IMG/VR virus record: IMGVR_UViG_3300025030_001440
Coordinates: 1-38,837 of that record
From: a virus
Strand: one strand, 5' to 3'
Length of the DNA stretch: 38,837 nucleotides
Shown here: in pieces, positions 22,691-34,792 of the stretch
Layout: every line of letters starts with the position of its first letter
How positions within the stretch are numbered: position 1 is the first letter of the stretch
Notes under the pieces: generated by a model
What the model saw: only the letters and a program-made list of their open reading frames with translations
What the model was told of the DNA's origin: nothing
The model's database searches: none
Translations under genes and position numbers: made by a program

Positions 22691-25600
22691 ATGGATCATT
22701 TTACTATAGCTTGTAGTAAATGTGGAAAACAAAAAACTCTCAAGTTTCCTACCAGAGCAACTTTATCCTGCCAATCTTGTGGAAATAAATTATCTAAAAT
22801 AGCCCTTCCACCAGATGAGGAAAATAATACAATTATTTTTAAATGTTCTAAATGTGAAAAACAATTTCCTATTAAATCTGGAATTTCTACTTATCTACAA
22901 TGCCCTTCTCCTAATTGCGGATGGGTAATTTTAGAAACGGTGGAAGCGGTTTGTTTATCTAAAATAAAAAATTGTCCTGAAAAAGAAGAATCCAAATATA
23001 TTTCAGTTCCTATTTCTGTTTCTCCTTTGATAAAAAGAAGAAAAGTTTCTTTTGAATCTTCTGACACTTCTATAAAAGTAGCTATCCCCTATTATAATGG
23101 AGGAGATAGAATTCAAAGGGCTATAAATAGTTGGATTTATCCAGAGGTTGTTTTTATTTTAACTGATGAGGCAGTTATCCCTCCGGGATCTGGGGTCTGT
23201 AGTCAATTATTTACTAATAAAAATTCTAATTCAGAAGGATTAAATAATAAAACTCAACCATATTTGATAGACATTTTATCTAAAATGGTAGAATTATTTC
23301 CAAATGAAAAATATTATGGATATTTTAATTCCGATATCATTCTCCCTTCAGGAACTTCTATTACCAGTCTTTTACCAGATGTTGGGAAAAAGATTGCTTT
23401 TCACCATCGAAGGGAATATGAAGGATCTACAAAGGAATCTCCTAGAAATTTAAATAAAAAATATCAAGTATTTTGTGGTAAAGATGGATTTGTAGCAGAA
23501 GCATCTGTAGTGAAAGATATCATAAAAAATGTAAAAGATATGGTTATAGGAGGATCATCTTGGGATGATGGATTAGCTATTTGGTGTTTTAAAAAGTATG
23601 GTAAGGATAAAGTAGATCTTCGATATGGTGAAATAAACCACGCTTTACATCAACAAGTTTGGACGGCGGATGATAAAGAATCTAGATTTAATAGAAAACA
23701 ATTAATAGAATCTGGAGTAGATGAGACCACTCGTCATTCTTTTAATTGGTTTAAAGAGGCAGATGGTGCAACCATTAAAGAAAGACAAAAATTACTAGGG
23801 TTGATTCAACCAGGAAGAATTGGCGATATAATTATCGTTCTTCCTATAGCTAAATGGTGCCATGATTTGGGATATAGAGTGGTTTGGCCCGTTGCTTCTG
23901 AATATGTTTCTTTATTTGATTATATAAATTATGTAGAAGTAGTTGATATAGAATCTGGTTTATCTGGTTCTTATAAAAAATCTAAATTTATTTTGAAAAA
24001 TAGAGAAATTACCAATATAGTGGATTTAGGCATAGGTTTTGGTAGGGATGAATCTGAGTGGGAATCATCAGGATTGTCTTTTGATGAATGGAAATATAAA
24101 GAAGCTAAAGTTCCTTTTGAGGAAAGATTTAATCTTATCATAAATAGAAATTTTCAAAAGGAATTAGATCTGCAAAAGAAATTGGATTTGTTATACAAGG
24201 AAAATTATGTAATTACCCATTCTATTGGTTCTAAAGGTAAAGTAGATTTTGATGAACACGACTCCGTAGAAATCAATCCTGTTTCTGGATTTACGGTATT
24301 TGATTGGATCGGAATAATTGAAAGAGCTTCTAAAGTTCTTTGTACAGATAGTTGCATAGCTCATTTAGTGAATCAATTAGGGCTTGCTGTAGGTAGGAGA
24401 ACTTTTCAACCTTTAGGTAATTATTTTGGAAGAACGTTAAAAATGGCTGTTCCGAAAATCAATTGGGAAGGTGAAAAGGAAGCCACTAAGATTAAAGCTC
24501 CTCGTGTTAAATCTAACAAATCAAACTGTACTCTACTTGTTTCATTACCGGGTTTACATACCGGAGACTGGCCCCTTTATCCTTTGGGGGTAGGCTATCT
24601 ATCTTCTTCGTTGAAAAGAGATAGAAATGTATCATCTATACACTTTCAAAAAGAACGTCATGTAGATGATATTCTTCCTAAAATTTTGGCTAATTCTCGC
24701 CCCGACGTTGTAGGATTTACTTGCTCTACTTTTAATCGTGGAGCAGTTCGTAAAGCTATTCAATTGGTAAAAAGTATTCTTCCAGAATCTTCCGTAGTGC
24801 TTGGGGGAGTTCACGCTACGTATTTTCCTCAACAAATGATTAAAAATTATGGGGCAGATTATGTAGTTATGGGAGAAGGAGAAAATACCCTTCGATATTT
24901 ATGTAATGCTTTAGAAGAAAAAATAGATTTGAAAAATATTCGTGGATTATCTTATTTAGATTTTCAAAACGAAGTTGCTATTAATCCTTCCGTTATTCCA
25001 ATAGATAATTTAGATGATCTTCCTTTTCCTGATTATAGTTATGCAGAACAAATAATAAGAGATAGTAAGATGGGAAGTATCATAACTTCTAGAGGATGCC
25101 CCGCTCGTTGTAATTATTGCTCTACTAGTCATTATTGGGGACAAAAAATTAGAGTTCATTCCGTAGAAAGAGTTTTAGATGAAATTGAAAGACAAATAGA
25201 TCTTTATGGAATTAAAAAGTTATTTTTTCATGACGATACTTTTAATTTATCAGAAATACGAGTTAAAGAAATTTGTCAAGGCATGATAGACAGAAAATTT
25301 AATTTAACTTGGGCCGCTCATGGAAGGGTTCACCCGGTTTCCTCCGAAATGTTAGATGCCATGGTGGAAGCTGGGTGTCGTCATATTTGTTGGGGAATAG
25401 AATCTGGATCTAAAGAAATTCTTCAATCTATGAATAAAAAAATAGACTTTCAGCAAATTGAAAGAACGTATAATTTATGCACTAAATATAAAGATGTAAT
25501 GACTACTGGGGCTTTTACCATGGTAGGATACCCAGGGGAAACGGAACAAACTATAAAAGAGACTTGTAATTTTTTAAATAAAATTCCCTTGACGGATTCC

Positions 25601-26743
25601 CCCAGTTCCTCCGTTTTATACGTTCTTCCGGGGACTCAAGTTTATAAGCAACTAGAAGATCGAATTGGGGATTCATATTGGGAAGATACGGATGATGTAT
25701 TTTATAATACTACTGAACACTCTTTGGAAACTCTTCATAAATGGGCAGGAATGGTAGGGGGCAGTGGAAATAGATTACCATTTGATATTAAAAAACATTT
25801 TTGGGATGGTGTTTTAATAGGAAAAATCCCTTCTCCTAAACCTCCTTCTTTAGATTTTAAAAAAAATTCTGATTGCCCCTTACATTTCTTTACTATAGTT
25901 TTGAATGGAATGCCTTTCATAAGATACCATATAAGAATGTTGCAATCCCTTCCGTTTGATTGGCATTGGCATATTGTAGAGGGAGTAGCAGATTTAAAGT
26001 ATGATACCCAATGGTCAATAGCATTAGGTGGTAAGATAGTAGATAAAATTCATAATAATGGATTGAGTAATGACGGCACTACAGAATATTTAGATTTATT
26101 AAAACAATTATTCCCAAATAAGATTTCTGTATATAGGAAAGGAAATGGTAATTTTTGGGATGGTAAAGTGGATATGGTTAACGCCCCTATTTCATATTTA
26201 CCAGATAATTGTATACTTTGGCAAGTAGATGTAGATGAATTTTGGGATTTAAAAAGCATAAATAGAATGATAAAAATGTTTAAAGATGATAAAGAAAAGA
26301 TGGCTGCTTATGTATATTGTCATTATTTCGTAGGTCCAAAAAAATATGTAGCATCTATGAATACTTGGGCTACTTTACCGGAAGATTGGTTACGAGTATT
26401 TAGATTTTACAAAGGATTTCATTGGAAAAAACATGAGCCTCCGACGTTAGTGGATAAAGATGGAAAAGATTGGGGCAGAGAAAAATTTATATCTAGAGAT
26501 GATACGTTAAGAAATGGAATCTCTTTTCAACATTTTGCCTATGTAGATTATAAACAAGTTGAATTTAAGGAAATTTATTATGGTTATTCAGGGGCTATAA
26601 ACAATTGGAAAAAGATGCAAAATACTAATGGAGAAGAAATTAACCCTCGTAAATTTTTACCATGGGCAGGAGATGCTTTAGTGAAAAATTGGAGTGATTA
26701 TAATGGAGAAAAATTACTTTACCCAGGCGAATGGATGTTATGA
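22691..26743 (+). CDS. Multidomain glycosyltransferase / cobalamin-binding radical SAM fusion
   Basis: A 1350-residue chain. Residues 1-80 hold two zinc ribbons (C8, C11, C27, C30; C52, C55, C71, C76). About 128-350 is GT-A-like, starting IKVAIPYYNGGDRI with YYGYFNSDIILP as its metal site. About 368-600 resembles GT9 (LIQPGRIGDIIIVLPIAKW; CTDSCIAHLVNQLG). About 613-745 is a B12-binding Rossmann domain without the DxHxxG signature. About 790-1010 is a radical SAM domain with CPARCNYC (C803, C807, C810) and GIESGSKEILQSMNK. About 1060-1350 is a second GT-A-like domain with QVDVDEF (D1180, D1182). Enzymes of this radical SAM type often methylate unactivated carbons. A sugar-building and methylating multi-enzyme is inferred; one continuous frame argues against a sequencing join. 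Confidence 0.82.
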   Translation: MDHFTIACSKCGKQKTLKFPTRATLSCQSCGNKLSKIALPPDEENNTIIFKCSKCEKQFPIKSGISTYLQCPSPNCGWVILETVEAVCLSKIKNCPEKEESKYISVPISVSPLIKRRKVSFESSDTSIKVAIPYYNGGDRIQRAINSWIYPEVVFILTDEAVIPPGSGVCSQLFTNKNSNSEGLNNKTQPYLIDILSKMVELFPNEKYYGYFNSDIILPSGTSITSLLPDVGKKIAFHHRREYEGSTKESPRNLNKKYQVFCGKDGFVAEASVVKDIIKNVKDMVIGGSSWDDGLAIWCFKKYGKDKVDLRYGEINHALHQQVWTADDKESRFNRKQLIESGVDETTRHSFNWFKEADGATIKERQKLLGLIQPGRIGDIIIVLPIAKWCHDLGYRVVWPVASEYVSLFDYINYVEVVDIESGLSGSYKKSKFILKNREITNIVDLGIGFGRDESEWESSGLSFDEWKYKEAKVPFEERFNLIINRNFQKELDLQKKLDLLYKENYVITHSIGSKGKVDFDEHDSVEINPVSGFTVFDWIGIIERASKVLCTDSCIAHLVNQLGLAVGRRTFQPLGNYFGRTLKMAVPKINWEGEKEATKIKAPRVKSNKSNCTLLVSLPGLHTGDWPLYPLGVGYLSSSLKRDRNVSSIHFQKERHVDDILPKILANSRPDVVGFTCSTFNRGAVRKAIQLVKSILPESSVVLGGVHATYFPQQMIKNYGADYVVMGEGENTLRYLCNALEEKIDLKNIRGLSYLDFQNEVAINPSVIPIDNLDDLPFPDYSYAEQIIRDSKMGSIITSRGCPARCNYCSTSHYWGQKIRVHSVERVLDEIERQIDLYGIKKLFFHDDTFNLSEIRVKEICQGMIDRKFNLTWAAHGRVHPVSSEMLDAMVEAGCRHICWGIESGSKEILQSMNKKIDFQQIERTYNLCTKYKDVMTTGAFTMVGYPGETEQTIKETCNFLNKIPLTDSPSSSVLYVLPGTQVYKQLEDRIGDSYWEDTDDVFYNTTEHSLETLHKWAGMVGGSGNRLPFDIKKHFWDGVLIGKIPSPKPPSLDFKKNSDCPLHFFTIVLNGMPFIRYHIRMLQSLPFDWHWHIVEGVADLKYDTQWSIALGGKIVDKIHNNGLSNDGTTEYLDLLKQLFPNKISVYRKGNGNFWDGKVDMVNAPISYLPDNCILWQVDVDEFWDLKSINRMIKMFKDDKEKMAAYVYCHYFVGPKKYVASMNTWATLPEDWLRVFRFYKGFHWKKHEPPTLVDKDGKDWGREKFISRDDTLRNGISFQHFAYVDYKQVEFKEIYYGYSGAINNWKKMQNTNGEEINPRKFLPWAGDALVKNWSDYNGEKLLYPGEWML

Positions 26744-27537
26744 ATAATATAGATATTTCTCAGAAAACTTGGCATGTTAATAAGTACAAAGAAATGTTAG
26801 AAAAAGGACCAGAGGCTTGGGATGGACTTATTAATCCCGATAGTATATGGTACTTCTTGCACACAGATTGCATAGATAAAATTAAGGAATTTTTTCAAAA
26901 TATACCTCCATCTACTTTTCTTACTTTGGGAGATGGGTACTGCGGGAGAGAAGCTATTCATATAAAAAGATTTGGGTTTGGTCATAAAGTTCACGCTTCT
27001 GATTGGCAACCTTGTCTTATAGAATTGGCGCACAGTATGGGACTAGTAGATGAGTTTTCAAACCAAGATATGAATTCGTTAACTTTTGAAGATAATTCTT
27101 TTGACTTTGTTTTTATAAAAGAATCTCTTCATCATATGTCTAAACCATATCTTGGGCTTTATGAAATGTTTCGTGTGGCGAAAAAGGGAGTTATTTTGAT
27201 AGAACCGAGTGGGGATAATGAACCCCGTTATCATTTCAATAATTTTGAACCAACGGGAAATTATATGTTTGGTTTTTCATCCCACGAATTAGTTAAAATA
27301 GGTCTAGCTTACGGATTTAAAAACTTTGTAGTAACGTATGCTTCCGTTCATTTTGGACGACATAATATTGATAATATTAATGCAGGGAAAGTAGATGAGG
27401 AGAAAAGGAGATTGATAAATTTAGATAATCAACTTCCCTTGAAAGATAGGCCATTATTAATATTTTTCTTTTTGAAAGAAGAAAAACTTTTAGATGCTTT
27501 TAAAGATGAAAATAGATTTAAGAAAGTGAGGATCTAA
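26731..27537 (+). CDS. Class I SAM-dependent methyltransferase
   Basis: The fold is shown by FLTLGDGYCGREAIHIKRFG (SAM motif I, about residues 63-82), HASDWQPCLIELA, and SFDFVFIKESLHHM, typical of Methyltransf_11/25 enzymes. The C-terminal part (PTGNYMFGFSSHELVKIG) is typical of sugar methyltransferases near glycosyltransferases. ATG 26731 overlaps the previous gene by 13 bases; ATG 26740, overlapping the stop as ATGA, is the alternative start. A glycan is the likely substrate from its context; N-, O- or C-methylation cannot be told. Confidence 0.78.
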   Translation: MDVMNNIDISQKTWHVNKYKEMLEKGPEAWDGLINPDSIWYFLHTDCIDKIKEFFQNIPPSTFLTLGDGYCGREAIHIKRFGFGHKVHASDWQPCLIELAHSMGLVDEFSNQDMNSLTFEDNSFDFVFIKESLHHMSKPYLGLYEMFRVAKKGVILIEPSGDNEPRYHFNNFEPTGNYMFGFSSHELVKIGLAYGFKNFVVTYASVHFGRHNIDNINAGKVDEEKRRLINLDNQLPLKDRPLLIFFFLKEEKLLDAFKDENRFKKVRI

Positions 27538-27539
27538 AT

Positions 27540-28109
27540 TTGGTTCCCCATTATGCTGATTTTAAGGATAGAATATCTTCCGTAGAGGGCCTTTTATTTC
27601 CGGGGGAGGATGAATTTCTTTTTAATATGTCTGCCCAAATGCCTGAAGATGGCGTTATAGTTGAAATGGGTAGTTATTTGGGAAAGTCTTCAGTATCCTT
27701 GGGATTTCCTTGCTTAGGAACTAAACGAAAAGTTTACTGCATAGATCTTTGGGGAACAGAATCTTGGTTTACTAGTTGGAAGGAAACGATAAATAAATTT
27801 GGACTTTCTGAAAATGTAATTCCGTTGAGAGGATATGCTGGAGATATTTTACGAGATTGGGAAAAGTTGACCGGGGGAATAAAAATAAATATGGTATTTA
27901 ATGATACTTCTCATTGTCTCCCAAGTGTTCTGAACGAGTTCGTTTTGGTTTATCCGTGGGTAAAAAATGAAGGGGTAATGGCTTTTCATGATTATACTCA
28001 TGCATCTTACCCCGACGTAGCTAAAACTTGGGAAGTAGTGAAAACGATGTTATTGAATCATAAATCCATGGGATCAATTGTTTTAGGTAGAAAGGTTGAA
28101 ATCAAATGA
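27540..28109 (+). CDS. Class I methyltransferase (Methyltransf_24-like)
   Basis: TTG start with GAGG eight bases upstream. Motif I is VIVEMGSYLGKSSVSL (about residues 39-54), followed by KVYCIDLWG with the SAM-ribose acidic residue. A later NMVFNDTSHCLPSVLNEF and GVMAFHDYTH match the Asp/His metal site pattern of small sugar O-methyltransferases in this family. At 189 residues it is a single catalytic domain. It overlaps the next gene by ATGA and the three methyltransferase-like genes (26731-28789) are contiguous, which suggests sequential action on one substrate. Confidence 0.75.
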   Translation: MVPHYADFKDRISSVEGLLFPGEDEFLFNMSAQMPEDGVIVEMGSYLGKSSVSLGFPCLGTKRKVYCIDLWGTESWFTSWKETINKFGLSENVIPLRGYAGDILRDWEKLTGGIKINMVFNDTSHCLPSVLNEFVLVYPWVKNEGVMAFHDYTHASYPDVAKTWEVVKTMLLNHKSMGSIVLGRKVEIK

Positions 28110-28789
28110 ATTTAATGATGGTCGATGCTCTATCAACTTTTGGTAAGACTTTGCGAGGAGTTATTCAAGATGTTAAGCCTAAGAAAATTATAGAAACTGG
28201 GACGTATTTGGGCAAAGGTACTACCACCGTAATAGCATCGGCTTTGAGAGATTTTAATATTGACTCTACAAAATTTTACTCAATAGAAGTAAATCCTCAA
28301 TATTTTCGATCTGCATATATCCATCTTAGAGATATGGGTTTATTAGATTACGTGATGTTGATAAACGGATTATCTATATTCAGAAAACAACTTCCAAATA
28401 AAGATGAAATTAAGAAGAATTTTTTGGATAAAGAATGGCCCAAAGAAGTCTATATCGACCATAGTAAAGAAACTAGAGTTGATCGTTACTTCGAAGAAAC
28501 TAACTTTGATAATGTTCCAGAAGGAGTATTATTAACTTGTTTAGGAAAATTAAGTCAATCTCCTGATTTGGTACTTCTTGATAGTGGTGGTCATATAGGA
28601 GGGATCGAATTCGATACTTTGATTCCCGTTTTAAAGAAGGAATGTATTATTGCATTAGATGATGTTTTTCACGTAAAGCATTATACAAATTTGAAAAAAA
28701 TAGAAAAAGATCCTAGATTCAAAATTTTATATTTATCTAAAGAAAAATTTGGGTACTGTATAACTCATTTTCGACCGGAGGTAACTTGA
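28106..28789 (+). CDS. Class I SAM methyltransferase-like protein
   Basis: The 227-residue protein has KKIIETGTYLGKGTTTVIAS (about residues 26-45) as SAM motif I, KFYSIEVNPQYF as the acidic strand and DLVLLDSGGHIGGIEFD plus CIIALDDVFHVKHY as the later catalytic strands. This is the pattern of small methyltransferases acting on sugars or peptides. An insert of about 45 residues (112-160, charged) between them is unusual. The start overlaps the previous stop (ATGA). The substrate is unknown, presumably the same glycan as its neighbours. Confidence 0.68.
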   Translation: MNLMMVDALSTFGKTLRGVIQDVKPKKIIETGTYLGKGTTTVIASALRDFNIDSTKFYSIEVNPQYFRSAYIHLRDMGLLDYVMLINGLSIFRKQLPNKDEIKKNFLDKEWPKEVYIDHSKETRVDRYFEETNFDNVPEGVLLTCLGKLSQSPDLVLLDSGGHIGGIEFDTLIPVLKKECIIALDDVFHVKHYTNLKKIEKDPRFKILYLSKEKFGYCITHFRPEVT

Positions 28790-29805
28790 ATCCATTAAAA
28801 CTTTTCTGGGGAACGGTAACAACTGATAAAAACGTCGGAAACTTATTCGGCTACCGCACCCATAATACCATGCTTCGTAAATATACTGAAATGAGGGATG
28901 ATGTAATAATAGTTGGTACTATAGATGAAGCAGATGCATGTTTATATATCACCACTCCAGAAGTATTCAATTCCCGTCCAGATAAACCCACCTTTCTTTT
29001 TACGATGTTCGAAGCGACCCGTCTTCATGAAATGTATGCAGAGAAAATTCAGAAAGCGGACTTCATTTTAGTTCCTAGTAATTTTGTAAAAGGTATTTTT
29101 TCACCCCATTTTCCAGAAGATAAAATTTGGGTAGTTCCGCATGGAGTAGAAGAAGATTTTGGATTTGTACTCCGAAAAAGGAACCCAAAAAAATTTCGTT
29201 ACTTATGGATAGGTGCTCCGAATCCAAGGAAAGGATATCAAGAACTTATCTACGTTTGGGGGAAACTTGGTCTCGCTTCTAATCCAGAAATAGAGTTATA
29301 TATAAAAACAACACGTGTTCCTAACGTGACGATTCAAAAAAAGGGAAACGTTATTTTAGACAGTAGAATCGCTACTAAGGAGGAAATGATAAAAATTTAT
29401 CAAGATGCCCATTGCTTTGTTTGGCCAACTCGCGGTGAAGGATTCGGATTGCCGTTGGCAGAGGCCATGGCGACGGGACTTCCTTGCATAGCCACGGGAT
29501 TTAGTGGGGTGCTAGATTTCTTTGATAAAAAAGTAGGATACCCTTTGAAATATAAATTAGGGTTGATGGACATGACCTCTCCGATATACGGGGATATGGG
29601 TAAGGTGGAAGCGGCTTTCCCTGATGTAGCTGATTTAGTAGAGAATATGGTTTTTGTTAAAAATAATTATAAGCATGCCTTGGAAAAAGGAAGATTAGCA
29701 AGTCATCGGATAAAAAGTAGATTTACGTGGGAAAATTCTGCTGAAACTTTAGTCAACTCTATCCGAGCAGGATTGGAGGAGAATAGAAATGCCTTATGCC
29801 ACTAA
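28786..29805 (+). CDS. Family 4 glycosyltransferase
   Basis: GT-B fold retaining sugar transferase. TTG start overlaps the previous stop (TTGA), with CGGAGG upstream. The N-terminal domain includes VPSNFVKGIF and VVPHGVEEDF; the C-terminal half has YLWIGAPNPRKGYQELI and the donor-site motif RGEGFGLPLAEAMATGLP with conserved Glu residues. At 339 residues it matches the family. It ends the second cassette and overlaps the start of the connector gene by 17 bases, so the cassette is fully embedded in the late operon rather than a separate unit. Confidence 0.85.
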   Translation: MNPLKLFWGTVTTDKNVGNLFGYRTHNTMLRKYTEMRDDVIIVGTIDEADACLYITTPEVFNSRPDKPTFLFTMFEATRLHEMYAEKIQKADFILVPSNFVKGIFSPHFPEDKIWVVPHGVEEDFGFVLRKRNPKKFRYLWIGAPNPRKGYQELIYVWGKLGLASNPEIELYIKTTRVPNVTIQKKGNVILDSRIATKEEMIKIYQDAHCFVWPTRGEGFGLPLAEAMATGLPCIATGFSGVLDFFDKKVGYPLKYKLGLMDMTSPIYGDMGKVEAAFPDVADLVENMVFVKNNYKHALEKGRLASHRIKSRFTWENSAETLVNSIRAGLEENRNALCH

Positions 29806-30352
29806 AGTACAAGTTAAAGCATATTTGGAAATTAAGACTTCTGAAATTAGTAAGGATGATTTAATTGACGCTTTGATCGGTTTCTGCGATGAATTTATCA
29901 ATGAATATTGTAATAGAACTTTTACTCAGGCAGCTGTAACAGAGTACCACGATGGTGGATCAAATAAAGTATTTCTTAATAGATTCCCTGTAGCATCTTC
30001 TCCGGCAGTTCAAGTTTGGGATAGTTGGGATAGGTCTTATGCCAGTACGGATTTAATCGACTCCGATGATTATTTTGTAGATACTGAAAATGGTATCCTT
30101 AAATTTGATTATGATATTGGAGGATCTCCGGGAGCGGTAAAAGTTACTTATACTGGTGGGTATTCTACCATTCCCGGTCCTATAACTCAGGCTTGTATTG
30201 AATTGGTAGCTAGAAAATTGAAAGAGGGTCCTAGTGGAGGGTTAGGGGTTCCTAGTAGATCCCTTCCTAATGGGGGTAGTGTAACATTTGAAATTGGTGC
30301 TCTTCTTTCTCAAACTAAGATAGCTCTAGATGCCTACAGTGTATTACCCTAA
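29789..30352 (+). CDS. Head-tail connector protein (HK97 gp6-like)
   Basis: Connector that joins the portal to the tail. Residues 1-45 are helical (TKVQVKAYLEIKTSEISKDDLIDALIGFCDEFINEY), as in gp6/gp15-type adaptors. A middle beta part with DSDDYFVDTENGILKFDYD and VKVTYTGGYSTIPGPI is the classic Phage_connect/gp6-like signature, followed by ITQACIELVARKLKEG. GGAGGAG precedes the ATG. Its stop codon is overlapped by nine bases by the antisense tnpB gene; the insertion has left the connector frame intact or replaced only its last codons. Confidence 0.85.
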   Translation: MPYATKVQVKAYLEIKTSEISKDDLIDALIGFCDEFINEYCNRTFTQAAVTEYHDGGSNKVFLNRFPVASSPAVQVWDSWDRSYASTDLIDSDDYFVDTENGILKFDYDIGGSPGAVKVTYTGGYSTIPGPITQACIELVARKLKEGPSGGLGVPSRSLPNGGSVTFEIGALLSQTKIALDAYSVLP

Positions 30353-31558
30353 ATGAAGCAACTTTCGTCGCTTCAACATAGGATTTCCGGTTTCACGAGC
30401 ACTAGCAAGGACAGAGGACTTACGTCCTCTGCCTTGGCTGACGGTGCCTCCACCGGCAGTCACGGCGATCCCCGCCGCGATCATTCTTTGGGCTTCATTT
30501 CTAATATTCTTAGCGGCATTGACATCGCGGTCGTGCAAGGTCTTGCACCTATCGCATCGCCAAGAACGAATGTTAAGAGGCATCTCAGATTGAACATGAA
30601 GACAGACGGAGCAAGCTTTGCTAGAGGGGAAGAAACGATTCACTTTGATGAAACCTTTTCCTACCCTCTCAGTTTTATAACGGAGGAATTCAACCAAAGT
30701 TCCCCATCCTACATCGCTGATAGCCTTAGCAAGTTTATGATTCTTCATCATACCTTTAACATGCAAATCCTCGACGGCAATGACTTGGTTTTCGTCAACA
30801 AGCCGTCGAGAAATCTTATGGAGATAATCTTTCCTACAATTAACAACCTTTTCATGGGCCTTAGCTACCAAAATTCTGGCTTTGTTTCTAGATTTACTTC
30901 CTTTCATTTTTCTAGAAAGTTTTTTCTGTTTCCTTTTCAAATTCTTTTCAGCCTTCAAAAGATGGCGAGGATTATCAAATTTAGCCCCATCACTAGTAAT
31001 AGCAAGATGATTCAAACCAACATCAATTCCAATAACTTTTCCTTCAAAAGAAGGAGAAGGAATGGGAACCCCATTATCCGTCAGAATAGAAGCAAAATAT
31101 TTACCAGAAGGAACACGACTAATCGTAACAGTTTTGATTTTACCTATGATTTCTCTGTGAATGATGGCTTTTACCAAACCAATTTTAGGAAGGTAAATTT
31201 TATTTTCTACAATTTTAACGCTTTGTGGGTATTGAATAGATTGATTTCCTCTTTTAGATTTGAATTTAGGATACTTTGCTCGACGTTCAAAAAAGTTTAT
31301 GAAAGCTCGGGACATATGAAGACAAACGGATGTCAACACCTGACTATGTGTTTCAGAAAGCCAAGGATACTCTTCTTTAAGTTTAGGAAGACGATAAGTC
31401 AATCCAAACTGACTAAAACCTTTCCCCGTTTCTTGATAAACTTTTTGGGTTTCTGCAAGGCTATTATTCCAAAGCCATCTAGCACAACCAAACGCTTTTG
31501 CAAGAGATTCTTCTTGCAAAGCGGACGGGTAGATGCGGATTTTGGTGGCTGTTAACAT
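30344..31558 (-). CDS. tnpB: TnpB RNA-guided nuclease
   Basis: TnpB proteins are RNA-guided DNA nucleases, the ancestors of Cas12. I start at ATG 31558 (MLTATKIRIYPS), the normal family N-terminus; 35 in-frame residues upstream look like element end. The 404-residue protein keeps every RuvC residue: VIGIDVGLNHLA (D179), VIAVEDLHVKGM (E263) and HDRDVNAAKN (D345). The four-Cys zinc finger is intact (C316, C319, C335, C338). It therefore looks active. The last codons overlap the connector stop. The 3' end of the coding strand also specifies the omega RNA. It opposes all neighbouring late genes. Confidence 0.92.
   Translation of the reverse strand: MLTATKIRIYPSALQEESLAKAFGCARWLWNNSLAETQKVYQETGKGFSQFGLTYRLPKLKEEYPWLSETHSQVLTSVCLHMSRAFINFFERRAKYPKFKSKRGNQSIQYPQSVKIVENKIYLPKIGLVKAIIHREIIGKIKTVTISRVPSGKYFASILTDNGVPIPSPSFEGKVIGIDVGLNHLAITSDGAKFDNPRHLLKAEKNLKRKQKKLSRKMKGSKSRNKARILVAKAHEKVVNCRKDYLHKISRRLVDENQVIAVEDLHVKGMMKNHKLAKAISDVGWGTLVEFLRYKTERVGKGFIKVNRFFPSSKACSVCLHVQSEMPLNIRSWRCDRCKTLHDRDVNAAKNIRNEAQRMIAAGIAVTAGGGTVSQGRGRKSSVLASARETGNPMLKRRKLLHLG
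30354..30487 (-). ncRNA. Probable TnpB omega RNA
   Basis: On the tnpB strand the 3' end of the gene folds well. GGCAC near 30448-30444 pairs with GTGCT near 30402-30398. Inside, CAAGGC-AGAGGAC pairs with GTCCTCT-G(T)CCTTG around a GTAA tetraloop (30437-30406). A terminal stem TGAAGCGAC/GTTGCTTCA with a GAAA loop lies at 30375-30354. Omega RNAs of TnpB systems overlap the gene's 3' end and run to the element end, so this is the expected place. The 5' limit is taken from where a second copy (33866 on) begins to match. Confidence 0.7.
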
Positions 31559-31562
31559 GATA

Positions 31563-31576
31563 TTAGTATATACTAA
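31563..31576. repeat. 14-base perfect palindrome beside tnpB start
   Basis: TTAGTATATACTAA reads the same on both strands and lies four bases upstream of the tnpB start codon on its strand. It may be the left-end hairpin of the element or a repressor/promoter site for tnpB. Confidence 0.5.
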
Positions 31577-31656
31577 ATTCGTAGTAAGTAAAAGAAATAT
31601 TTTCTTTTGGAAATGAAATTTGTTATTCTCTTGATCTAAATTGAAAGGCGCAGAAA

Positions 31657-32175
31657 ATGGCAAACTCTTTCGAACTGAAATTCGTTCTCCCTCCGGGGAC
31701 TAGTGCTATTTCTAGATTACCTCCTTTGATTCAATCTAACGTTATTAGAGCTTTAAAAGATGGAATGCTAATAGCAGAAAGAATATCAAAAACTCAATAT
31801 TTATCTGGCCCTCGTCCAGAAAAATTAGCGGTAAAAACGGGGCTTTTGAGAAGTAGAGTTTTAGGAATTCTGGCTGGGACTGGGGGCGATCCAAAAGTAT
31901 TTGCTTCAGGTGTTTTAGGCGTATCAGGAGTAATTTATGCTCGTATTCATGAATTAGGGGGTATTACTAAACCACATCCTATTGAAGCTAGAAATAAGCC
32001 TAGATTAGTTTTCTTTTGGAAAAAGAAAGGAATTTGGATGAGCATTCGAAAAGTAAGCCATCCGGGGTCTAGAATCCCTGCTCGTCCTTATCTAAGACCG
32101 GCTTTTGATCAAGCAAAACCTAGCATAGAAAATTTGATACAATTGGCTATAAATAAAGCATACAAGGATAGCTAA
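31657..32175 (+). CDS. HK97 gp10-like head-tail protein
   Basis: A neck/tail-completion family protein (HK97-gp10-like). The signature YARIHELGG, followed by PHPIEARNKPRLVFFWKK and SRIPARPYLRPAF, is characteristic. Length 172 residues is typical. GAAAGG lies before the ATG. The tnpB element has separated it from the connector gene, its normal neighbour. It overlaps the next gene by one base (TAATG). Confidence 0.85.
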   Translation: MANSFELKFVLPPGTSAISRLPPLIQSNVIRALKDGMLIAERISKTQYLSGPRPEKLAVKTGLLRSRVLGILAGTGGDPKVFASGVLGVSGVIYARIHELGGITKPHPIEARNKPRLVFFWKKKGIWMSIRKVSHPGSRIPARPYLRPAFDQAKPSIENLIQLAINKAYKDS

Positions 32176-32594
32176 TGTCAACACGAAACGATATTTTAGA
32201 GGATATTAAAACTTGTTTGAAAGATTATTCTAAAGCTACAGATGTAGTCAGGAAATTTGTTTTTTTTGATGAGGTTCCGGCATTTCCTTATTTAATGGTA
32301 TTAGGGGGGGATGAACCTTTTGAAGATGAATTAGGGGATTCTACTTTAAGTCGTATGCGAGTTAGGGTAGTTGGTTATTCTAAGAGTGCAGAGGAACCTG
32401 AACAGGAGCAATGTGATTTAATAGAAGATGTTCTTAAATGTCTGGATGATGATACATTTAATCTAAGAAAGAAATATATGCGTCCATTGGGTGTTGAAAC
32501 TGACGAAGGTATGTTACATTCAGCAGGAAATGGAGTTGCTATGTTTGTTCTGAATTTGGAACTTACGTATAAATTTTTAAGGAGCGCACCTTAA
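32175..32594 (+). CDS. Tail terminator-like protein
   Basis: The 139-residue protein sits where lambda U/HK97 gp11-like tail terminators sit, after gp10 and before the tube protein. N-terminal helix (RNDILEDIKTCLKDYSKA), then beta strands with the pattern FPYLMVLGGDEPFEDELGDSTLSRMRVRVVGYSK and a central helix (EQCDLIEDVLKCL) fit that alpha/beta fold. A final GVAMFVLNLELTYKF strand closes it. It would cap the tail tube and join it to the head. Assignment rests on position and fold pattern. Confidence 0.65.
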   Translation: MSTRNDILEDIKTCLKDYSKATDVVRKFVFFDEVPAFPYLMVLGGDEPFEDELGDSTLSRMRVRVVGYSKSAEEPEQEQCDLIEDVLKCLDDDTFNLRKKYMRPLGVETDEGMLHSAGNGVAMFVLNLELTYKFLRSAP

Positions 32595-33349
32595 TGGAAA
32601 GTAATAAATATTGGGATAGTTCTATAAAACTTGGTTGGGCTTGCCCTTTGTCATGGCCTTATTTGAATTCCACTACCCACATTTCTTTACTAGCTATGGA
32701 TCGTCCTGATTTTATTCTTCTAGAAGCATCTAGAGGAGGAGATATTGCTGAAAAGAGAGAAGCTCAAGTAGATGAAGGATTACGATTGGGATGTACCCAT
32801 ATAGTATTACTAGATGCAGATATGGTTTATCCCCCAAGCACTTTACGAGATTTATTTTCAATAATGGAATCTCATAATGCTGATATGGTGGGAGGACTTT
32901 GTTACAGAGGGTACGAGCCATATGATCCTCTCATTTGGAATCCTACTGAGGAGGGTTTACTTAAACCCTTTGAAGATTACAAATTCGGAGATATAGTATC
33001 CGCAGGGGCTACGGGTGCCGCTTGTTTATTGGTCAAGCGGGGTGTTTTTGAAAAGCTACCTCGTCCATGGTTTCGTGTTCAGACGGAAGAGAAAACGGTG
33101 GATGGCAAGATCGTTGTAATTCGAAGGGGGGAAGATACTTATTTTACTAGGAATGCAACTAAAGCTGGATTTAAACTTTTGATTAATACTGATTATGATA
33201 TTGGGCATCTTAGGGAGTTTGCTGTGGATCGTCATTTTTGGATTACTTACGGCATACTTAACCAGCTTGGAAACTGGGGTACGGCTTTTAAATTATTTAG
33301 AAAACTGAAGGATAAAGAGTGGTTGAAGAAAGAGTTCGGGGGAGATTAA
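32594..33349 (+). CDS. GT-A glycosyltransferase embedded in tail genes
   Basis: A 251-residue GT2-type enzyme with a standard N-terminal half (LLEASRGGDIAEKREAQVDEGLRLG), LLDADMVYP with D74 and D76 as the metal motif, the GATGAACLLVKRGVFEKL loop and GEDTYFTRNATKAGF on the acceptor side. Its start overlaps the previous stop (TAATG). Lying between the tail terminator and tube genes, it is expressed with tail proteins, so a structural tail protein is a plausible acceptor; this is inference. It is separate from both glycan cassettes. Confidence 0.8.
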   Translation: MESNKYWDSSIKLGWACPLSWPYLNSTTHISLLAMDRPDFILLEASRGGDIAEKREAQVDEGLRLGCTHIVLLDADMVYPPSTLRDLFSIMESHNADMVGGLCYRGYEPYDPLIWNPTEEGLLKPFEDYKFGDIVSAGATGAACLLVKRGVFEKLPRPWFRVQTEEKTVDGKIVVIRRGEDTYFTRNATKAGFKLLINTDYDIGHLREFAVDRHFWITYGILNQLGNWGTAFKLFRKLKDKEWLKKEFGGD

Positions 33350-33364
33350 AAAATTTAAGGGAGG

Positions 33365-33441
33365 CTCCGCAAGGAGTAATTATAATGATGGAAGTAGAGG
33401 GTTTTCCAACAACTAGACAATATGTAGGAAAGGAGAATTAG
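33365..33441 (+). promoter_or_regulatory. RBS hairpin and possible 18-aa leader before tail tube gene
   Basis: CTCC-GCAA-GGAG (33365-33376) can form a four-base-pair stem with a GNRA loop that includes an AAGGAG ribosome site. Nine bases later, ATG 33385 opens an 18-codon frame (MMEVEGFPTTRQYVGKEN) ending at TAG 33439-33441, one base before the tube protein's start. A short leader frame that couples translation into the highly expressed tube gene is possible. It could also be just untranslated leader. Confidence 0.3.
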
Positions 33442-33442
33442 T

Positions 33443-33856
33443 ATGGGCGACCCTTTGATGGGGAGGTATGCAAGTATTAAGAAAGGTTCCGTATTAGTCG
33501 AAAACTTGGGAAAATGGACCCTTGATATTAAGATGGATGAGATTGATACTTCCGTCTTTGGGTCTGTTTGGGGAAAGAAGATTCCTGGAATGCAGGCGTG
33601 GACCGGGACGGTGGAAGGATTTTATGACCCCGCTGATACAAATGGTCAGAAGGCCCTTCATGATGCGGCGTTGGCGGCAACCAAGTTGACAGATATTCGG
33701 TTCTTTATTGACTCCACCAGCTACTGGACTCCTGATGTCACTGCGGAGACTGCCGCCGGAGCGTACATTTCTTCTATCAACGTGGGACACGACAAGGCAG
33801 GTGTAGCATCGATCACTATGAATGTGATCGGATACGGTAAAATCGCACTCGTGTAA
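33443..33856 (+). CDS. Major tail tube protein
   Basis: At 137 residues the protein has the tube fold pattern: an N-terminal strand pair (GSVLVENLGKWTLDIKMDEIDTSVFG), a loop (WGKKIPGMQAWTGTVEGFYDPAD) and a C-terminal pair (GAYISSINVGHDKAGVASITMNVIGYGKIAL). It lies just before the frameshifted chaperones and tape measure, the invariant position for the tube gene. AAAGGAG precedes the ATG. Like the capsid gene it uses more C- and G-ending codons than its neighbours, as expected for one of the most abundant virion proteins. Confidence 0.85.
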   Translation: MGDPLMGRYASIKKGSVLVENLGKWTLDIKMDEIDTSVFGSVWGKKIPGMQAWTGTVEGFYDPADTNGQKALHDAALAATKLTDIRFFIDSTSYWTPDVTAETAAGAYISSINVGHDKAGVASITMNVIGYGKIALV

Positions 33857-33865
33857 TATATGTTG

Positions 33866-33992
33866 TATGATCGCGGCGGGGATCGTCGTGACTGCTAACT
33901 GAGGCACTATTAGACAAGACAAGGATTGAAAAATCTTTTGTACTTGCTGGTGCCCGTGAAGTTAGAAGCCCTTTTTTGGGGCAATCCACGGG
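33866..33992 (+). ncRNA. Orphan omega-RNA-like element
   Basis: From 33867 to about 33972 the sequence matches the tnpB-strand sequence 30484-30380 at about 70% by eye, including 19 of 20 bases at 33871-33890. Read in the tnpB frame it meets TGA after 11 codons, so it is not coding. The main hairpin is kept: CAAGAC-AAGGATT (33915-33927), GAAA loop, AATCTTT-(T)GT(A)CTTG (33932-33946). The outer GGCAC/GTGCC stem (33903-33907 and 33950-33954) is also kept. Several stem positions differ on both sides yet still pair. A terminal hairpin GCCC/GGGC (33968-33982) resembles a right-end hairpin. It is probably a relic or a stand-alone guide RNA. Confidence 0.7.
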
Positions 33993-34041
33993 GGCGTTAC
34001 AATGGTATTAAAAGGGCGTTAAAAGGGGGGCGTTACAATGG
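33991..34041 (+). repeat. Duplicated start region of the tail chaperone gene
   Basis: The word GGGGCGTTACAATGG occurs at 33991-34005 and again at 34027-34041, a shift of 36 bases. The first copy opens a mini-frame MVLKGR ending in TAA at 34020-34022; the second contains the real ATG 34038 of the chaperone gene. The intervening AAAGGGCGTTAAAAGG is also internally similar. It arose by duplication next to the omega-RNA-like element. Confidence 0.65.
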
Positions 34042-34445
34042 CGTTAAAATTGAAGAGGTTTCAAGCAGGAAAGTGGTTTGATTATCCGGGAGCGGAAGGG
34101 GTCCGGTTTTTGATCCGGCCCCTCCCTCTTTCTGAAGGGCTTGCTATTCGTTCTAGAATTCGGGAACGGGTTCCTACAGAAATCGACATGACTCAAGGGA
34201 AGACAAAAGGGAAAATTACTACTCTTTTGGAAGATATTGATACCGGGAAATACACTTGGGAAATTTTTAATTTTATCCTTCAAGATGTAGAGGGGATTGA
34301 TTTAGAAGATTCCCCCGAAGCCTCTTTGGAGGAAAAGAAAAAGGCTATTTTTGATGATATATCTCTCCGGGAGTTTATTTCAGAACAGTCGGAGTTAGTT
34401 CGTCAAGATGGGGAACGAAAACTGGATTCTGAAATAAAAAACTGA
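34038..34445 (+). CDS. Tail assembly chaperone, short form (gpG-like)
   Basis: A 135-residue acidic protein between the tube and tape measure genes, the position of lambda gpG. It starts MALKLKRFQAG and has a helical, charged second half (DSPEASLEEKKKAIFDDISLREFISEQSEL). The frame ends ATA AAA AAC TGA. The A AAA AAC heptamer at 34436-34442, two codons before the stop, lets a share of ribosomes slip back one base into the downstream frame. Chaperones of this kind coat the tape measure during tail assembly. Confidence 0.8.
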   Translation: MALKLKRFQAGKWFDYPGAEGVRFLIRPLPLSEGLAIRSRIRERVPTEIDMTQGKTKGKITTLLEDIDTGKYTWEIFNFILQDVEGIDLEDSPEASLEEKKKAIFDDISLREFISEQSELVRQDGERKLDSEIKN

Positions 34446-34792
34446 CCCTGCTCGCTGAATGGATTAAAGAAAAAAGGGAGACTAAATTCTGGTGCGAGAC
34501 TTGTCGAGAGCACTATGAATTTAGGAGCAAGCGAGCAGGCAAGGAAATATCTCCTCCGTGTAATGATTGTTTTCCGGGGGTAGATTTTGAAAACTCGGAA
34601 GCTTGGGAGGTATTTCAATTAGCTAGTGCTGATCCTTGGGGGGTGAATCCTACGGGGGTAATTGAAGTTTGTAAGGTTTTAGAAGTGGAAGATATTCAAG
34701 AATGTTTATTTAAAGTTTTAAGATTAGCTCAAGTATTAGAAGCGGAATCCAAAAATAAACACTCCCCCAAGGAGGAAAATAAAATTGGCTGA
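34038..34792 (+). CDS. Tail assembly chaperone, frameshifted long form (gpGT-like)
   Basis: Join of 34038-34442 and 34442-34792 by -1 frameshift; the product is about 251 residues. The T part has no usable start of its own and fills the otherwise empty 340 bases before the tape measure gene. It begins LTLLAEWIKEKRETKFWC and includes CETC near base 34492 and CNDC near 34560, a likely zinc-binding pair of knuckles, then a helical tail ending KEENKIG. Its stop overlaps the tape measure start by eight bases. The G/GT pair with a fixed ratio is a hallmark of long-tailed phages. Confidence 0.82.
34436..34442 (+). promoter_or_regulatory. Programmed -1 ribosomal frameshift site
   Basis: A AAA AAC is a classic X XXY YYZ slippery heptamer in the correct phase relative to the chaperone frame. 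The zero-frame stop TGA follows immediately at 34443-34445. After slipping, the next codons are CTG ACC CTG CTC and stay open to 34792. No strong downstream stem was confirmed by eye. Confidence 0.85.

What the first reader, a model, noticed from the sequence alone, without database searches (positions are those of the whole stretch)
33866..33992. Orphan omega-RNA-like element with compensatory stem changes, between tail tube and chaperone genes
The non-coding sequence after the tail tube gene matches the 3' end of the tnpB gene (2.3 kb away, opposite strand). It has a stop after 11 codons in the tnpB frame, so protein coding does not explain the match. In the main 13-pair hairpin, five pairs differ on both sides yet still pair (three G-C to A-U, one A-U to U-A, one C-G to U-A), and one more is a single change to G-U. 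The loop stays GNRA (GUAA versus GAAA). The enclosing GGCAC/GUGCY stem is also kept. Paired changes point to selection on RNA structure rather than decay. An orphan guide RNA in a phage late operon, next to a still-intact TnpB, could be a domesticated RNA-guided system for exclusion of rivals or for regulation. It could also be an old right-end remnant.
Basis: partly seen in the sequence, partly recalled or inferred. Interest (0 to 1): 0.92.

Follow-up and report, generated by a model that had tools for sequence, protein, structure and literature searches.

The report
Stray TnpB guide-RNA scaffold in phage
Between two tail genes of an environmental phage lies a complete, correctly folding guide-RNA scaffold of a TnpB transposon without its own tnpB gene; similar gene-less scaffolds occur in many copies in methane-oxidising bacteria, so it is most likely a stripped-down transposon remnant, although use by the phage's own TnpB cannot be excluded.

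Summary
A covariance model built only from six tnpB-linked omegaRNAs, without the orphan, finds it full-length at 33867-33989 (98.8 bits, E 5e-21). It keeps 35 of 37 model pairs and a perfect 4-bp pseudoknot; random scatter of the same substitutions keeps about 25-27. (1) The scaffold is complete, from stem 1 to the right end. (2) It does not derive from the neighbouring tnpB but from a sister lineage. (3) Only part of the paired changes lie on the orphan's side: in the outer CUAAC/GUUAG stem the window's tnpB is the one that changed. (4) tnpB-less scaffold elements (left end joined to scaffold) are multi-copy in Methylococcales-order genomes and carry the same in-frame TGA; they resemble described PATEs. 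(5) Related phages with a 92%-identical tail protein have an empty site. (6) The guide-position sequence repeats 36 bp downstream, without the family's inferred TTTAW motif. Best reading: an insertion-sequence derivative that lost tnpB and its left end, still fold-competent, with no shown role. A trans-acting guide for the resident TnpB remains possible (about 25%); nothing here supports rival exclusion.

The parts
33867..33989 (+). complete standalone omegaRNA scaffold (stem 1 to transposon right end), no tnpB
   Evidence: R1 covariance model made without it: 98.8 bits, E 4.9e-21, positions 1-129; 35/37 pairs and 4/4 pseudoknot pairs kept
33871..33891 (+). stem 1 (33871-33878 with 33884-33891); homology to tnpB ends about where this stem begins
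   Evidence: corresponds to the ISDra2 scaffold 5' end (PMC10097598)
33880..33883 (+). pseudoknot partner GGAU in the loop of stem 1; pairs with AUCC at 33984-33987
   Evidence: most relatives GAAU/AUUC or GAAC/GUUC; the orphan has A-U to G-C on both sides against them
33895..33965 (+). outer stem CUAAC (33895-33899) with GUUAG (33961-33965), enclosing stem GGCAC (33903-33907) with GUGCC (33950-33954)
33915..33946 (+). main hairpin with GAAA loop at 33928-33931; contains the two orphan-unique double changes
33968..33989 (+). right-end hairpin (GCCC..GGGC, 33968-33982) and terminus AAUCCAC
   Evidence: aligned to right ends GTAATTCAC / GTAGTTCAC of intact elements
33990..34005 (+). guide position GGGGGCGTTACAATGG (transposon flank)
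34026..34041 (+). second identical copy of those 16 nt, over the start of the next gene; preceded by GTTAAAAG, not TTTAW
30344..31558 (-). intact tnpB of a related but different element
   Evidence: Pfam OrfB_IS605 7e-30 and Cas12f1-like_TNB 6e-21; PDB TnpB matches
30339..30484 (-). omegaRNA and right end of that tnpB element
   Evidence: R1 134.3 bits (it is in the training set)
33443..33856 (+). major tail protein gene upstream
   Evidence: phrog_1407 major tail protein E 3e-11
34038..34445 (+). gene downstream; tail chaperone by position only
   Evidence: no Pfam or PHROGs match; lies before a tape-measure-like gene

Best explanation
It is the right-hand part of a TnpB-type (IS200/IS605-like) insertion sequence that reached the gap after the major tail gene in this phage lineage as, or soon became, a tnpB-less element, and then lost its left end. 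What is left is a full guide-RNA scaffold plus right end, belonging to a sister lineage of the window's own tnpB element. Its structure was kept by selection while it (or its recent ancestor) was a working omegaRNA without a coding role. In the phage today it is probably a passive, fold-competent leader segment of the late mRNA. Shown: homology, completeness, fold, pseudoknot, different lineage, empty site in relatives, existence of multi-copy tnpB-less relatives in bacteria. Inferred: how it arrived, loss of the left end, and absence of a present role.
For: R1 match without training on it. Closest letters are Methylococcales-type elements (76%) and not the window's tnpB (71%). Bacterial tnpB-less copies join a left end of about 130 nt directly to the same scaffold start and share the TGA in GCTAACTGAGGC. 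There are 15-18 R1 matches (tnpB-linked and tnpB-less together) in each of three genomes. Empty site in L004-L006 (92% tail protein; 28 nt from stop to ATG) and in L007-L010. No left-end motif anywhere in the window. A PATE-like element made of left end + tnpB 3' end + right end is described (PMC7290912).
Against: The orphan has no left end, so derivation from a PATE-like element is inferred, not seen. Structure retention after loss of the frame (two orphan-unique double changes, restored pseudoknot) is more than a neutral relic should show, unless the insertion is recent. The scaffold is cut almost exactly to its functional length.
Confidence: 0.6

Rival explanations
1. A retained trans-acting guide RNA: late transcription gives the scaffold plus the flank as guide, the resident TnpB loads it, and the pair protects or targets a site.
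For: Complete scaffold with intact pseudoknot; TnpB next door with active-site motifs; TnpB cuts the 5' end itself from longer transcripts (PMC10278001); the ISDra2 scaffold trimmed to the stem-1 start is active (PMC10097598); tnpB-less bacterial relatives also keep the whole scaffold.
Against: No target with the inferred TAM in the window or phage relatives examined; the only perfect second match is the phage's own next gene, which a live nuclease should not hit; loading across the two lineages is untested; the phage may hold it only recently.
Confidence: 0.25
2. A structured 5' leader co-opted to set translation of the downstream tail gene.
For: It sits in the 181-nt leader; the ribosome-site/start segment is duplicated; the right-end region can pair CCCGUG with CACGGG over the first copy (sequence).
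Against: Predicted accessibility of the two start regions is not clearly different; relatives do without it; no conserved element besides the omegaRNA features.
Confidence: 0.07
3. Plain eroded copy of the window's own tnpB end, with pairing kept by chance.
For: 95-nt similarity.
Against: Closer to other elements in the outer stem and right end; 35/37 pairs against about 25-27 expected, 0-2 of 5000 random placements as good.
Confidence: 0.05

Closest known systems
PATE (palindrome-associated transposable element) of IS200/IS605, e.g. the 271-nt PATE-like element of Halanaerobium hydrogeniformans (PMC7290912)
   Same: tnpB mostly deleted, 3' end of tnpB and whole right end kept
   Different: the phage copy has no left end, and the full omegaRNA fold including the pseudoknot is tested here
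omegaRNA / reRNA of ISDra2 TnpB (PMC8612924, PMC10097598)
   Same: scaffold begins at stem 1, ends at the right end, stem-1 loop pairs with the right-end terminus, guide would be the flank
   Different: no tnpB in cis; no transcript or activity known
TldR guide RNAs of prophages (PMC13418256)
   Same: TnpB-derived RNA-guided machinery in a phage
   Different: the resident TnpB has its active-site motifs, there is no fliC or regulated target, and the inferred TAM is missing

Membership tests
TnpB omegaRNA (scaffold) | homology and conserved secondary structure of tnpB-linked scaffolds | tested here: met
   R1 built without the orphan, E 4.9e-21 full length; 35/37 pairs
TnpB omegaRNA (scaffold) | pseudoknot between the stem-1 loop and the right-end terminus | tested here: met
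   GGAU/AUCC 4 of 4
TnpB omegaRNA (scaffold) | right-end subterminal hairpin within about 10 nt of the guide | tested here: met
   33968-33982, 7 nt before 33990
TnpB omegaRNA (scaffold) | transcribed, bound by TnpB, guides cleavage | not testable with these tools
   no expression data
PATE / MITE-like IS605 derivative | no tnpB, right end kept | tested here: met
PATE / MITE-like IS605 derivative | left end with hairpin | tested here: not met
   0 matches of the bacterial left-end motif in the window, 3 mismatches allowed; only 10 nt between the tail stop codon and the scaffold
PATE / MITE-like IS605 derivative | insertion next to the family TAM (TTTAW, inferred from bacterial left flanks) | tested here: inconclusive
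   left flank of the phage copy is GTGTAATATATGTTGT; relatives L004-L006 have TTTAA at the stop codon
TldR-type RNA-guided repressor | nuclease-dead TnpB homologue | tested here: not met
   D, E, D blocks present in the window TnpB
TldR-type RNA-guided repressor | guide matching a promoter next to a TAM | tested here: inconclusive
   no TTTAW-flanked match in the phage loci scanned; host genome unknown

The most novel reading that the evidence does not exclude
Standalone omegaRNAs are kept by selection as trans-acting guides: phages and bacterial tnpB-less elements carry complete scaffolds, with compensatory helix and pseudoknot changes after loss of the reading frame, that reprogram a TnpB encoded elsewhere in the same genome.
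Probability: 0.22. Interest if true: 0.8.

Novelty: new variant of a known kind. Interest (0 to 1): 0.5.

Why it matters
If standalone scaffolds are loaded in trans, TnpB can act with guides from many sites, a step between transposon-bound TnpB and multi-guide CRISPR-Cas12. The multi-copy tnpB-less families in methane-oxidising bacteria, together with this phage copy, give a ready test set: the frame is gone, so any remaining covariation reports selection on RNA alone.

Tried and rejected
Rfam: no match in the window, none at E up to 5 around the orphan. Nucleotide search of phages found nothing; plasmids gave only 22-32 nt chance-like matches at E 0.1-0.4. Two searches used wrong-strand coordinates of L085 (sufB gene), so loci L088-L164 are irrelevant. 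A short DNA pattern in viral contigs was too loose; the two new model hits, L225 and L248, are ordinary tnpB-linked copies. L003 carries the same orphan, but its 30250-34450 region differs by 1 base from the window, so it says nothing about selection. Promoter/terminator scan: nothing above chance. Leader accessibility: no clear result. The different TnpB of L004 (3562-4647) was considered as a source and rejected: another family by sequence, and model R1 finds no match in its record.

Full report
What is there. The antisense similarity between 33867-33960 and the end of tnpB is real (73/95, E 3e-12). It extends by structure to 33989. A model (R1) of six tnpB-linked omegaRNAs that excludes the orphan has 37 pairs, 12 of them with double changes (0 of 500 shuffles reach this). 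It finds the orphan full length at 98.8 bits, E 4.9e-21. The fold is the same five-helix layout. As in the ISDra2 structure (PMC10097598), the loop of stem 1 can pair with the right-end terminus: GAAU/AUUC in most relatives, GAAC/GUUC in others, GGAU/AUCC in the orphan, while the window's own tnpB element has a mismatch there.

Chance and direction of change. Scattering the same substitutions at random over extant bacterial sequences keeps about 25-27 of 36-37 pairs; the orphan keeps 34-35 (0-2 of 5000 draws as good). The alignment was fitted to the model, which leans towards pairing, so this is supportive rather than exact. Compared with eleven tnpB-linked sequences, 17 columns are unique to the orphan. 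Among them are both sides of two hairpin pairs (60-96 and 61-95), one pseudoknot letter that restores a G-C pair, and two letters that break pairs. The outer stem differences from the window's tnpB are, by contrast, on the tnpB side. Because intact tnpB-linked relatives keep the reading frame through this region while the orphan has a TGA and a frameshift in the hairpin, those hairpin changes most likely arose when no protein was read there (inference). A TnpB with an early stop is a possible alternative carrier, so this does not prove selection inside the phage.

Origin. The nearest intact elements are in a Methylobacter MAG and other genomes of the same order (TnpB 72-74% identical). Model R1 finds 15-18 matches in each of three genomes. 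Some are tnpB-linked. Others consist of a conserved left end of about 130 nt joined straight to the scaffold start (L184, L187, L189, L190, L191, L194, L195, L196), with TGA in GCTAACTGAGGC (one copy GCTAGCTGAGGC) as in the orphan; further variants have other junctions. The main group keeps 33-36 of the model pairs and the whole pseudoknot. These look like PATEs, of which one with left end, tnpB 3' end and right end is described (PMC7290912). In the phage, relatives with a 92% identical tail protein have 28 nt between the two genes and no insertion; more distant ones are empty too. The phage copy has no left end.

Function. The guide position reads GGGGGCGTTACAATGG. In the phage sequences scanned it matches only its own flank, a second copy 36 bp downstream over the next gene's start, and that gene start in relatives with two mismatches; none is preceded by TTTAW, the TAM inferred from bacterial left flanks. 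The TAM of the window's own TnpB is unknown and the host genome was not available, so targets elsewhere are not excluded. No promoter or terminator stands out; the element would be read with the late operon (inference).

Verdict. Observation confirmed and extended; interpretation partly supported. Most likely a tnpB-less, left-end-less transposon derivative that still encodes a fold-competent guide scaffold; use by the resident TnpB is the main rival.

Noticed in passing
L184, L187, L189, L190, L191, L194, L195, L196 (also L192, L198, L201-L203, L206, L207, L181): Multi-copy tnpB-less elements in Methylococcales-order genomes: left end joined directly to a full omegaRNA scaffold and right end, left flanks TTTAT/TTTAA. 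Some have a wholly different apical hairpin (L201-L203, L206, L207).
   Followed up: partly
L004:3562-4647 (-): Related phages lack both elements of the window but carry a different TnpB-like gene elsewhere in the same tail operon.
   Followed up: partly
window 30339-30352: The right end of the tnpB element supplies the last codons and the stop of the head-tail adaptor gene 29789-30352.
   Followed up: no
window 30250-34450 versus L003: Nearly identical block (1 difference) flanked by 2-5% divergence, a recombination mosaic.
   Followed up: partly
window 22691-29805: Run of genes that read like glycosyltransferase, radical-SAM and methyltransferase proteins beside the structural genes (by eye, not searched), plus a glycosyltransferase at 32594-33349 inside the tail operon.
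   Followed up: no
window 33990-34041: 36-bp tandem repeat of the ribosome-site and start region of the downstream gene.
   Followed up: partly
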